Shown here: positions 30,354-32,689 of the stretch, in pieces
Numbering within the stretch: the first letter of the stretch is position 1
Layout: each line of letters opens with the position of its first letter
Source of the DNA: Dasypus novemcinctus
Lineage: Eukaryota > Chordata > Mammalia > Cingulata > Dasypodidae
Direction: 5' to 3'
Length of the DNA: 64,000 bases
Assembly: GCF_030445035.2 (NCBI RefSeq)
Contig: NC_080694.1
Coordinates: 76,099,257 to 76,163,256, forward strand
Notes under the pieces: generated by a model
Database searches by the model: none
What the model was told of the DNA's origin: nothing
The model's input: the letters and a program-made list of their open reading frames with translations, nothing else
Position numbers and translations under genes: made by a program

Positions 30354-32495
30354 TTACAGGCAGGAAGTATGGTGGGAAGGGGGGCAAGGACATGGTCGAG
30401 ATTGAGGAATGGAATCAGAAGCAACGAGACGTTGGTAATGAATTTGGACAAATGAGGAGAATACACTGTCAGCATGATCTTTGGCAAGGCGGATGATTCG
30501 TCGAATGGCCCAGGGACCAACGGTGAGGCCCAGGACAATGAGCAGAACTGGGGTTAGTAACGGGAGGAGATAGGGGAGGAGGGGCTGCAGGAAGCCCCAG
30601 GAACCAGCAGTTTGGGCTCGTTCAAGTCGGCGTTGGTTGAGACCTTTTTCAAGTTCTTTTAAGCTAGAGTCTACTAAGCTGGTATAGTTAGCATAAACGC
30701 AGCATTCTTCTCCTAGAGCAGCACATAGGCCACCTTCTTTAAGGAGGAGGAGGTCAAGGCCTCGGCGGTTTTGCAGGACAACTTCAGAGAGAGAATTAAG
30801 AGAGTCTTTAAGGTATTTGACTGCATCACGAAGGTAGATGATATCAGAGTCTACTGCTTGTCTGAGGTTTTGGAGGGCAGATGCTTGTGTGGCTAGAGCA
30901 GCAACACCAGTGGCAGCTCCAGCTGCAGCTAGGAGGGAAGTGACAGTGAGTACAGCAGTAATAGGTTCGCGTTTGTGGAGGTAAATAGCTTCTTGCGTGT
31001 GATCAAAGGCTTCAAAGAAATGTAGAGGAGTGTGATAAATGACTCGAGGTGTGAGGAGGATAAGAGCACATGTTTCTTTGGTCTTGTTAAGTGTGGCAAC
31101 AGATAAGCATGGAGTAAGTCCGGTGGAAGAGCAAAGCCATAGGGTAGTGTTTAGAGGAATTAAGTATTTGGTAGAGATATTTGGGGAGATATAGTTGGCA
31201 CAGGCTGTAAGGCTGGGAGTGCGAGAAGAACGGGGGTGAATGCATAAACCTTTGGAAGAGATGTGCGTAAAAGTGAGTGGGACATGAGTAGATTGATTCC
31301 AATTGCAGGAAGAGGGGGAATCGTCAGTGGAGGAAGTAAAGAGTGGTGAAGGAATAGCAAGTGGATCATAGAGGGGGAGGCTGGGGGAAAGACACAACCA
31401 GCAAGAGCGAGTGAGGTTGGGGTGGGAGGCGTTGAGAGAGAAATAGGAGGCGTTTAGGAGTTTGAAGTAGGGACTAGAGGAGATGAGAGGATGTGGTTGT
31501 AAATCTGAAGCAGGGGGGGAAGTGGACCTAGTAGAAGGAACGAAGGCGGTCGAGGTGGAAGAGATTTTGAGGGGAGTAGATGAGGACGGAAGAAGGTGAA
31601 CAGTGGGTGGGGGAGGAGGGTTAAGGATGTGGTTGGGACCAATAGCAGAGAGTGGGGCAGAGACAGGTCTTTTCATTATAATAAAAAAGGCACCAGGGTC
31701 ATACTCGGTCATATACAGGCGGATCCCCCAAGTGCGGCCTGTGAACCACTGATCTGAATTAGGGTCTTTGACAGAAAGTGTGACGCGGTCCCATCGATTT
31801 CCATACTTGAGAGTGAGATATGGGTCTTTGTCTTTTGGGGTTGTAGACAGGCCATAGGCTATGGTTTCACAGCCCCAGGATGGGCAGTAGTAATGTGTCG
31901 GATCATGACAGCCTCTCACTGAAGGGGGGCATATATAGTAACCGGAAAGAGTTTTCCCGTAGGGGCCAGTAAGGCCACTGCTAGGGGTGCCTGAGCACTT
32001 GGGTCGGGGTGGCAACTTATTACTGATGTATCCCATGTTAAATGTATTTATAACAGAGCTGGAGATTTTAGTATCTGTGTGATCGTATCCAGCTAGCCGG
32101 CAAACTTGCAGCGTGAAGGAGGGGGCTCCAGCAGTCACGTTGAAGGCGAGAAGTTTTTCAAACTGCCAGAGGCTGAGGGTCCAATTGAAGGGCTGGTGAT
32201 TCAGGTTGGCGGTAGCAGAGGAGGCTAGAGACAGCATGAGGATAAGGAGATGAATGAGACGGGGGAGGGTGGAGGGGCAGGAGGCGGGGGTCTGGATAGA
32301 GCGGGCTTGTCTGAGGAGTTGAAGAATTTGGCGTTCGATGGGGTCATCATCTTCAAGAGAAAGTCGGCTTAGGCGGCGGGCAAAGAAGCGTTGTCGACGT
32401 CGTTCGCGGCGAGAGAGAGCTGGTGTGGTCCCCATGGGCGACGGTGTTGGGGTAGTAGGCTCAGATGAATGTACTTGGGGGCGCATAGTGGTCAT
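30354..32495 (-). CDS. env: ERV-C Env, full length and open
   Basis: 713 codons from ATG 32495. Residues 1-96 form a long leader: an arginine-rich cluster at about 29-41, a leucine-rich stretch to about 61, then a hydrophobic core ending SSATA. SU carries HQPFNWTLSLWQ, YYCPSWGCETIA and the CWLC motif. Next come a basic HKR site, a fusion peptide (SLLAAAGAATGVAAL), LQNRRGLDLL, CX6CC, the membrane anchor (LLPYLLPLLTPVLLIVLGL) and a cytoplasmic tail. The body resembles MLV/FeLV-like gammaretroviral Env, while pol is betaretroviral. No stop or frameshift is seen. The start was chosen because its ATG overlaps the stop of the upstream small ORF (ATGA). The frame is open a little further upstream but lacks another good start except an ATG near 32729. 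Confidence 0.9.
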   Translation of the reverse strand: MTTMRPQVHSSEPTTPTPSPMGTTPALSRRERRRQRFFARRLSRLSLEDDDPIERQILQLLRQARSIQTPASCPSTLPRLIHLLILMLSLASSATANLNHQPFNWTLSLWQFEKLLAFNVTAGAPSFTLQVCRLAGYDHTDTKISSSVINTFNMGYISNKLPPRPKCSGTPSSGLTGPYGKTLSGYYICPPSVRGCHDPTHYYCPSWGCETIAYGLSTTPKDKDPYLTLKYGNRWDRVTLSVKDPNSDQWFTGRTWGIRLYMTEYDPGAFFIIMKRPVSAPLSAIGPNHILNPPPPPTVHLLPSSSTPLKISSTSTAFVPSTRSTSPPASDLQPHPLISSSPYFKLLNASYFSLNASHPNLTRSCWLCLSPSLPLYDPLAIPSPLFTSSTDDSPSSCNWNQSTHVPLTFTHISSKGLCIHPRSSRTPSLTACANYISPNISTKYLIPLNTTLWLCSSTGLTPCLSVATLNKTKETCALILLTPRVIYHTPLHFFEAFDHTQEAIYLHKREPITAVLTVTSLLAAAGAATGVAALATQASALQNLRQAVDSDIIYLRDAVKYLKDSLNSLSEVVLQNRRGLDLLLLKEGGLCAALGEECCVYANYTSLVDSSLKELEKGLNQRRLERAQTAGSWGFLQPLLPYLLPLLTPVLLIVLGLTVGPWAIRRIIRLAKDHADSVFSSFVQIHYQRLVASDSIPQSRPCPCPPSHHTSCL

Positions 32496-32689
32496 GGGAG
32501 AAGGACTACAAGAGAGATGAGGATAGCAATTAGAAGCAACCAGGCAATAGCAAGGAGAAGACGTTGACGAAGGTTCCAGTCTGTTGGGGCTGTGGCTGCG
32601 AGACAGACAGCTGAAAAGATTGTTAGAAAAATGAAAATTGCAAGAAAAAAGCAAAGTAAGAGTGGGTGGGAGGGGAGCTTGAGGAGCAT
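32492..32689 (-). CDS. Small two-helix pre-env ORF of ERV-C
   Basis: 65 codons from ATG 32689 (an upstream in-frame GTG at 32695 is less likely). Helix 1 is about residues 9-30, then the loop AATAPTDWNLRQR, then helix 2 to the C-terminus. The TGA overlaps the env ATG as ATGA, suggesting stop-restart coupling on a shared spliced mRNA. It aligns without gaps to ERV-B 19483-19680. No named family is recognised. A membrane hairpin or viroporin-like role is inference. Confidence 0.72.
   Translation of the reverse strand: MLLKLPSHPLLLCFFLAIFIFLTIFSAVCLAATAPTDWNLRQRLLLAIAWLLLIAILISLVVLLP

What the first reader, a model, noticed from the sequence alone, without database searches (positions are those of the whole stretch)
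32492..32689. Conserved 65-codon two-helix ORF directly before env in three proviruses
ERV-A (15479-15670), ERV-B (19483-19680) and ERV-C (32492-32689) each carry a 63-65 codon ORF immediately 5' of env. All have a hydrophobic helix, a short loop with the AP-x-DWNL core, and a second hydrophobic helix. ERV-B and ERV-C align over all 65 residues without gaps (about 37 identities by eye), although the proviruses differ greatly in age and intactness. The stop and env start are coupled as TAACATG, TAATG and ATGA. I know of no described accessory gene of this kind at this position in betaretroviruses. A membrane hairpin, viroporin-like or Env-regulating protein made from the env mRNA is plausible.
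Basis: partly seen in the sequence, partly recalled or inferred. Interest (0 to 1): 0.87.

Follow-up and report, generated by a model that had tools for sequence, protein, structure and literature searches.

The report
Membrane-protein gene before retroviral env
Ancient retroviruses buried in the armadillo genome carry a small, selectively conserved gene for a membrane peptide just in front of their envelope gene, which looks like an undescribed viral accessory gene shared by two different retrovirus lineages.

Summary
The finding holds and is larger than stated. The three proviruses lie on the minus strand; each has an intact 63-65 codon ORF at the start of env. ERV-B has a second copy upstream, so the window holds four. 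Protein constraint is clear: against nine diverged copies dN/dS is 0.06-0.10 in this frame and 1.35-1.98 in the env frame. The gene also lies between pol and env of gammaretrovirus-like elements with an MLV-type integrase, so it is not a betaretroviral peculiarity. In locus L105 an ERV-A-type pol carries another hairpin and SU: the two were exchanged together. AlphaFold gives two helices around the AP-x-DWN loop. In the ERV-C family a conserved acceptor-like site makes the hairpin AUG, in weak context, the first AUG of the presumed env mRNA, an arrangement like HIV-1 vpu-env. Nothing matched above cut-off in Pfam, PDB, viral contigs or the protein database. Expression, topology and function are untested. 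Best reading: a new retroviral accessory membrane-protein gene co-expressed with Env.

The parts
32492..32689 (-). hairpin ORF of ERV-C (65 codons + stop TGA), stop overlaps env ATG as ATGA
   Evidence: 42 of 150 rows identical over 65 aa in the genome, the window's own included
30354..32495 (-). env of ERV-C from the ATG that overlaps the hairpin stop (713 codons + stop), gamma/D-type
   Evidence: Pfam TLV_coat 1.7e-88
32817..32818 (-). candidate env splice acceptor of ERV-C, 128 nt 5' of the hairpin ATG
   Evidence: counterpart by motif 126-133 nt upstream in 28 of 28 fetched family records
32727..32729 (-). ATG in env frame upstream of the hairpin; nearly private to this copy (others mostly read ACG)
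19483..19680 (-). hairpin ORF B2 of ERV-B (65 codons + stop), stop overlaps env ATG as TAATG
19745..19900 (-). second, upstream hairpin copy B1 of ERV-B; open frame to TAA, no in-frame ATG
15479..15670 (-). hairpin ORF of ERV-A (63 codons + stop)
15815..15816 (-). candidate env splice acceptor of ERV-A, 145 nt 5' of the hairpin ATG
14836..15477 (-). env SU part of ERV-A, interrupted by an insertion with LTR-like and inverted repeats
12227..13507 (-). env TM part of ERV-A
19202..19483 (-). N-terminal env remnant of ERV-B, from its ATG to the end of the match to ERV-C env
38243..38637 (-). 5' LTR of ERV-C; 3' LTR at 29623-30017; flanking duplication AGAGAG

Best explanation
It is a retroviral accessory gene for a small integral membrane protein, placed between pol and env and kept by protein-level selection while the viruses were replicating. 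SHOWN by sequence: the protein is constrained; the peptide has two hydrophobic stretches around an A-P-x-(D/N)-W loop; it occurs with both class II-like and class I-like (MLV-type integrase) pol; and in L105 it has been exchanged together with the SU part of env. INFERRED: singly spliced env mRNA joins at an acceptor about 126-145 nt upstream (ERV-C family and ERV-A), so the hairpin AUG, in weak context (pyrimidine at -3), is met first or nearly first. Some ribosomes make the peptide; the rest scan past it, or resume after its stop, to the env AUG, which overlaps the stop or lies up to about 21 nt beyond it. The peptide is inserted in the ER together with Env. Most likely action (guess, about one in three): it binds and removes or retains a host membrane protein that hampers Env or the particle, such as the receptor or a restriction factor, which would explain why it travels with SU. 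This is Vpu-like in arrangement, not in ancestry.
For:: dN/dS 0.06-0.10 in hairpin frame, 1.35-1.98 in env frame, 0.72-1.51 in the third frame, window copy against 9 diverged family copies; amino-acid identity exceeds random placement of the same changes in all six pairs (P from under 1/5000 to 0.025); pS above pN between families in this frame; C-B2 0.80 against 0.26, and 0.25 against 0.45 in env frame; 0 of 2000 shuffles for each of six pairs; acceptor by motif in 28 of 28 records, no ATG between it and the hairpin ATG in 27 of 28; a pyrimidine tract with YAG within 220 nt upstream in 34 of 34 A-type starts (crude pattern); pyrimidine at -3 in 28 of 28 (C family), 34 of 34 (A) and 29 of 30 (G) starts. 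MLVIN_C (7.3e-14) ending about 105 nt before a hairpin ATG, and TLV_coat after it, in a class I locus. L105 mosaic; two helices (mean pLDDT 86.6 and 78.0). PMC3022690 (passages): Vpu and Env come from one bicistronic mRNA.
Against: No RNA, ribosome or protein data. In class I loci the crude acceptor pattern was found in 0 of 30 starts examined, so the env-mRNA link is not shown there. Within the A and G families pN/pS is 0.60 and 0.59 in this frame, close to the +1 frame (0.66 and 0.57; 656 and 1128 pairs), as expected if copies decay neutrally after insertion; constraint is seen between families and subfamilies. At nucleotide level the hairpin is not plainly more conserved than its 5' flank (L028: 164 of 195 against 106 of 123; L022: 174 of 195 against 98 of 123); the signal lies in the codon pattern. 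ATG depletion inside the ORF is not significant. ERV-B keeps one ATG in another frame inside B2. Half of the G hairpins (26 of 52) are not open from an ATG. The design is too simple to tell function.
Confidence: 0.68

Rival explanations
1. It is an upstream ORF that tunes Env translation in cis (leaky scanning or termination-reinitiation); the peptide itself does nothing.
For: Stop and start overlap or lie close; UAAUG and AUGA are known reinitiation geometries in caliciviruses and, for UAAUG, influenza B (PMC3542737, passages); start contexts are weak at -3.
Against: Amino acids, not just length and position, are kept: dN/dS 0.06-0.10, 14 invariant residues in the four window copies. The spacing to env varies.
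Confidence: 0.1
2. It is a precursor with a cleaved signal peptide: the first helix is removed at (C/G)-L-A and a peptide of about 35 residues with one membrane span remains (E5- or Vpu-like), not a two-pass hairpin. Same gene, other topology.
For: A small residue at -3 and Ala at -1 sit at one place at the end of helix 1: C-L-A or G-L-A in the four window copies; G at -3 with A at -1 in 65 of 88 genome loci with a readable motif. ERV-A's first stretch has signal-peptide length.
Against: In ERV-C the hydrophobic core is about 19 residues, long for a signal peptide; both predicted helices are confident in C. No signal-peptide predictor was available.
Confidence: 0.35
3. The stretch belongs to env: Env starts at ATG 32729 and carries a long leader read in another frame.
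For: In the window copy the env frame is open from 32750 with an ATG at 32729.
Against: 27 of 28 fetched family records lack that ATG (most read ACG), 9 of 28 have a stop in the env frame between that place and the env ATG, and env-frame substitutions are mostly nonsynonymous.
Confidence: 0.01
4. It is a conserved RNA or splice element whose pyrimidine-rich sequence happens to encode hydrophobic residues.
For: Acceptor-like tracts inside helix 1 in ERV-C (32611) and ERV-B (19590).
Against: Third codon positions change most (25/12/40 between C and B2); only 3 consensus RNA pairs and no compensatory change in four sequences; 5' flanks of the window's types share nothing detectable (best E 0.6 between copies).
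Confidence: 0.02
5. It is a viroporin: helices oligomerise into an ion channel that aids Env maturation or budding.
For: Size, hydrophobicity and two helices.
Against: No histidine within the helices of the four window copies (by eye); basic residues lie near the loop or the ends. Any small membrane protein fits equally well.
Confidence: 0.18

Closest known systems
HIV-1/SIV Vpu
   Same: Small membrane protein made together with Env; for Vpu from a bicistronic mRNA (PMC3022690, passages). That the vpu ORF directly precedes and overlaps env is recalled.
   Different: No detectable sequence kinship; no charged cytoplasmic domain; two hydrophobic stretches; beta- and gamma-type elements, not lentiviruses.
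MMTV Rem / HERV-K Rec / JSRV Rej
   Same: Accessory products tied to env in class II retroviruses (PMC3621094, passages; PMC2649029 and PMC8725593, starts of abstracts in the listing).
   Different: Those are RNA-export-type proteins in the env frame (Arg-rich: recalled). The ERV-C family has an Arg-rich env leader as well, separate from the hairpin.
JSRV orf-x and the extra ORFs of bat betaERVs
   Same: Unexplained additional ORFs in betaretroviruses (PMC3621094, passages).
   Different: orf-x lies within pol. The bat survey set a cut-off of 100 codons and so would have missed a 65-codon ORF.
Influenza B M1-BM2 and calicivirus VP1-VP2 coupled cistrons
   Same: UAAUG or AUGA stop-start overlap (PMC3542737, passages).
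   Different: There a long first ORF precedes a small one and a TURBS motif is needed; here the small ORF comes first and no TURBS was looked for.

Membership tests
Vpu | small ORF directly 5' of and touching env | tested here: met
   C family 27 of 28 records; 23 of 37 A-type loci are 21 nt apart instead
Vpu | sequence homology to Vpu | tested here: not met
   no Pfam match above cut-off and none to Vpu at E <= 10 for the three ORFs (that Pfam holds a Vpu family is recalled); PDB profile search: 23 weak hits, best E 0.085, none named Vpu
Vpu | one membrane span with long charged cytoplasmic tail | tested here: not met
   two helices and no charged tail
Betaretrovirus (ERV-A) | dUTPase in pro and lysine-tRNA PBS (PMC3621094) | tested here: met
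   Pfam dUTPase 1.6e-23 and G-patch; PBS TGGCGCCCAAAGTGGGGC (that it is Lys1,2-like is recalled)
Betaretrovirus (ERV-C) | dUTPase in pro and lysine-tRNA PBS (PMC3621094) | tested here: not met
   pro ORF matches protease models only; ERV-A's dUTPase-protease ORF matches ERV-C in its protease part only; PBS TGGGGGCTCGTCCGGGAT (that it is Pro-like is recalled)
Gammaretrovirus-like class I ERV (type G loci) | MLV-type integrase C-terminus, Gag p30 and gamma-type Env | tested here: met
   ten pieces of three loci tested: MLVIN_C 7.3e-14 and 2.4e-12, Gag_p30 6.8e-22, TLV_coat 1.5e-30 and 1.8e-26, RT_RNaseH 1.9e-7; one rve match below its cut-off; three pieces, the RT piece among them, matched nothing. 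The other G loci were judged by their like upstream reading
Rem/Rec/Rej export proteins | Arg-rich nuclear localisation and export motifs, env frame | tested here: not met
   hairpin has 1-3 basic residues and another frame
Viroporin | ion conductance of an oligomer | not testable with these tools
   needs electrophysiology

The most novel reading that the evidence does not exclude
Simple-looking gamma- and beta-type retroviruses possess, or once possessed, a pre-env accessory membrane gene inherited as a cassette with the receptor-binding half of Env. It was acquired in the class I lineage at the pol stop codon, carried into class II-like backbones with the gamma-type env, diversified there, and was tandemly duplicated in at least one element (as vpr gave vpx in SIV, recalled). 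It would be a new gene family overlooked because surveys ignore ORFs under 100 codons.
Probability: 0.5. Interest if true: 0.82.

Novelty: new variant of a known kind. Interest (0 to 1): 0.74.

Why it matters
Accessory genes mark where a virus had to fight its host. [quoted passage not shown] A selected small membrane protein shared by gamma- and beta-type elements and linked to SU would show a shared, older strategy at the pol-env junction. It also gives a simple search rule for other mammals: look just after the pol stop for A-P-x-D-W flanked by hydrophobic stretches.

Tried and rejected
Read as plus strand: stops in all three. N-extended Env: rejected. RNA element: rejected. Host co-option shown by intact ORFs: rejected as evidence, since substitutions alone would leave the ORF intact in 72%, 80% and 96% of simulations for A, B2 and C, and A and G copies decay nearly neutrally. 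Duplicate of the env signal peptide: tblastn of the four hairpins on the window found no match in env at E <= 1. ATG depletion as sign of scanning: not significant. Database searches without relatives: viral contigs with P0001, with A1, with an env TM piece and with a pol alignment (these found no relative of the pol or env either, so they say nothing about the hairpin's spread); protein database with A1 at E <= 10 (A1 holds no G-type row, so that type was not really searched); PDB; Pfam. Paper searches: ten; no title or abstract start in the listings names such a gene; only passages of four papers were seen. The armadillo env screen (PMC5008099) is not held, so whether it mentions the ORF is unknown.

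Limits: genome searches with B2, B1 and G queries did not complete, so counts for those types are partial. Of 92 rows under 80% identity, 60 were fetched. L001 and L009 are the same place (28 records, 27 places). Assignment to types A and G was by hand from sequence. One search dropped 4 loci without a readable motif, and its fixed 50-codon window undercounts open ORFs. The tree dropped hairpins with stops or without the motif and most near-identical A copies. In one search the near-identical copies were left out of the dN/dS rows.

Full report
WHAT IS THERE. The coordinates are right but the strand is minus. P0001 (32492-32689), P0002 (19483-19680) and P0003 (15479-15670) are open from ATG to stop. 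A fourth copy, B1, lies upstream of B2 in the same provirus at 19748-19900; its frame is open for 51 codons but has no in-frame ATG. B1 resembles A (25 of 51) more than B2 or C (20 of 51 each), while B2 and C share 30 of 51; the grouping (C,B2)(A,B1) won 1972 of 2000 bootstraps among the four. A tree with more loci instead puts B1 on the side of B2, C and L105, so its place is unsure. Either way ERV-B carries two unlike hairpins in tandem.

THE PROVIRUSES. ERV-A (LTR matches 26566-26919 and 11544-11898, 93.2%), ERV-B nested in it (22159-23097 and 18164-19066, 90.4% with gaps) and ERV-C (38243-38637 and 29623-30017, 99.0%) each have a 6-bp flanking duplication. ERV-A and ERV-C pol share 34-36% identity and fall in different clades of 45 pol sequences: A in a 14-row set, C in a 9-row set, both with 100 support, and C on a long stem. 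ERV-A has dUTPase and G-patch; in ERV-C neither was found, and its PBS differs from ERV-A's. Both have gamma/D-type Env (TLV_coat). The host is Dasypus novemcinctus: contigs C24 and C11 have the lengths (114,737,117 and 132,154,393) listed for the two armadillo proteins that ERV-C Env hit.

IS IT A GENE? Yes by several lines. (i) Each of the six pairwise alignments beat 2000 of 2000 shuffles. (ii) Amino-acid identity exceeds random placement of the same number of changes in all six pairs (P under 1/5000 to 0.025). (iii) Between C and B2, changes fall 25/12/40 on codon positions 1/2/3, with pS 0.80 and pN 0.26 in this frame against 0.25 and 0.45 in env frame. (iv) Unsaturated test: the window copy against nine diverged genome copies gives 12-22 synonymous and 3-9 nonsynonymous changes, dN/dS 0.06-0.10, while the env frame gives 1.35-1.98 and the third frame 0.72-1.51. 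The nine share history and are not independent. (v) The same frame is the constrained one between A and five class I copies (pS 0.72-0.81, pN 0.28-0.34). Against over-reading: inside the A and G families pN/pS is 0.60 and 0.59, close to the +1 frame (0.66 and 0.57), so single intact copies are not evidence of keeping by the host; selection acted in the viral phase. Nor is the hairpin plainly more alike than its 5' flank as bare DNA (L028 164 of 195 against 106 of 123; L022 174 of 195 against 98 of 123).

HOW COMMON. With the C peptide the genome search scored 150 of 3132 first-look candidates; 42 rows (window included) are identical over 65 residues and 149 of 150 lack internal stops, a list biased to the best. 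With the A peptide 150 of 2668 were scored, at 35-100% identity.

CLASS I COPIES. Of 90 loci read (30 given by the search, 60 fetched of 92 rows under 80% identity) I place 37 in type A, 52 in type G, and L105 apart. Type G pol was tested in two loci: MLVIN_C (7.3e-14 and 2.4e-12), ending about 105 nt before the hairpin ATG in the first. TLV_coat env TM lies about 1 kb downstream of the hairpin in two loci and Gag_p30 upstream in one; three of ten pieces tested, the RT piece among them, matched nothing. At 39 of 52 G loci an ATG stands at the expected place, and in 34 of these 39 the codon before it is a stop (29 TAG, 5 TAA), after a like upstream reading, so the gene begins at the pol stop, in pol's frame. 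26 of 52 G and 30 of 37 A hairpins are open from an ATG through at least 24 codons past the loop. No match to the env proteins at hand was found within the roughly 700 nt fetched downstream of G hairpins.

MOVES WITH SU. L105 has a pol 77-82% identical to ERV-A's. Its hairpin is nearer B2 (28 of 50 residues, 41 of 144 bases different over 48 codons) than A (25 of 50 and 66 of 144). Its SU N-half is 45% identical to C and 30% to A, while its TM is 62% identical to A and 48% to C. So a segment from the pol end through the hairpin into SU was exchanged; this rests on one locus. Hairpin types also split {C,B2,B1,L105} from {A,G} (99 support, few columns), which does not follow the pol classes. Direction of transfer, from class I to class II-like, is inference.

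EXPRESSION. In the C family an acceptor stands by motif 126-133 nt upstream in 28 of 28 records and no ATG lies between it and the hairpin ATG in 27 of 28; the window's own ATG at 32729 is an exception shared among these only with L026. ERV-A has an acceptor 145 nt upstream and one 10-codon uORF between; a crude pattern finds a tract in 34 of 34 A-type starts and in 0 of 30 G-type starts. Start contexts have a pyrimidine at -3 in 28 of 28 C-type, 34 of 34 A-type and 29 of 30 G-type starts; on the window's minus strand 414 of 1169 ATGs are weak in the stricter sense of pyrimidine at -3 and no G at +4, and 23 of the G starts do have G at +4. Env's ATG is better placed in A and B (A at -3), not in C, whose second ATG is. 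This fits leaky scanning, as known for vpu-env (recalled; PMC3022690 passages give the bicistronic mRNA). UAAUG and AUGA geometries also occur in viral reinitiation (PMC3542737, passages).

STRUCTURE. AlphaFold models show helices 9-32 and 40-63 for C (mean pLDDT 86.6, pTM 0.63) and 10-27 and 34-60, plus a short one at 3-6, for A (78.0, 0.58), from four rows each. Helix 1 ends in a signal-peptidase-like (C/G)-L-A, with G at -3 and A at -1 in 65 of 88 loci, so a cleaved form is possible. Fold comparison could not be run.

VERDICT. A real, selected, apparently undescribed accessory gene; the works-like comparison is Vpu, the membership claim is not made. Function is open; my first guess is modulation of a host membrane protein relevant to Env.

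Noticed in passing
window 32181-32495 (-): The Env of the ERV-C family starts with a long Arg-rich leader (RRERRRQRFFARRLSRLSLEDDD), with like leaders in P0124, P0125 and P0131; it recalls Rem/Rec-type leaders. Pfam gave only REV at E 0.69, below cut-off.
   Followed up: partly
window 35673-38262 (-): ERV-C mixes a class II-like gag-pol in which no dUTPase was found, a PBS that I recall as proline-type, and a gamma-type env.
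   Followed up: partly
window 37124-37518: About ten tandem 39-bp units within the ERV-C gag ORF, coding for a 13-residue repeat.
   Followed up: no
window 21295-22100: 3.7 tandem copies of a 217-bp unit between the 5' LTR and the gag remnant of ERV-B.
   Followed up: no
window 13494-14842: Insertion in the ERV-A env with LTR-like sequence of the ERV-B kind and long inverted arms.
   Followed up: no
L105, L125, L126: Element with ERV-A-like pol and TM but another hairpin and SU: a recombinant.
   Followed up: yes
L066, L068, L071, L078, L079, L083, L084, L089, L101, L112: These class I hairpin frames begin right after a stop at one place before helix 1, which looks like a shared old stop marking a subfamily (seen directly for four).
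   Followed up: no
window 1245-2177 (+): Intact 310-codon ORF that reads like an olfactory receptor (my reading, not tested).
   Followed up: no
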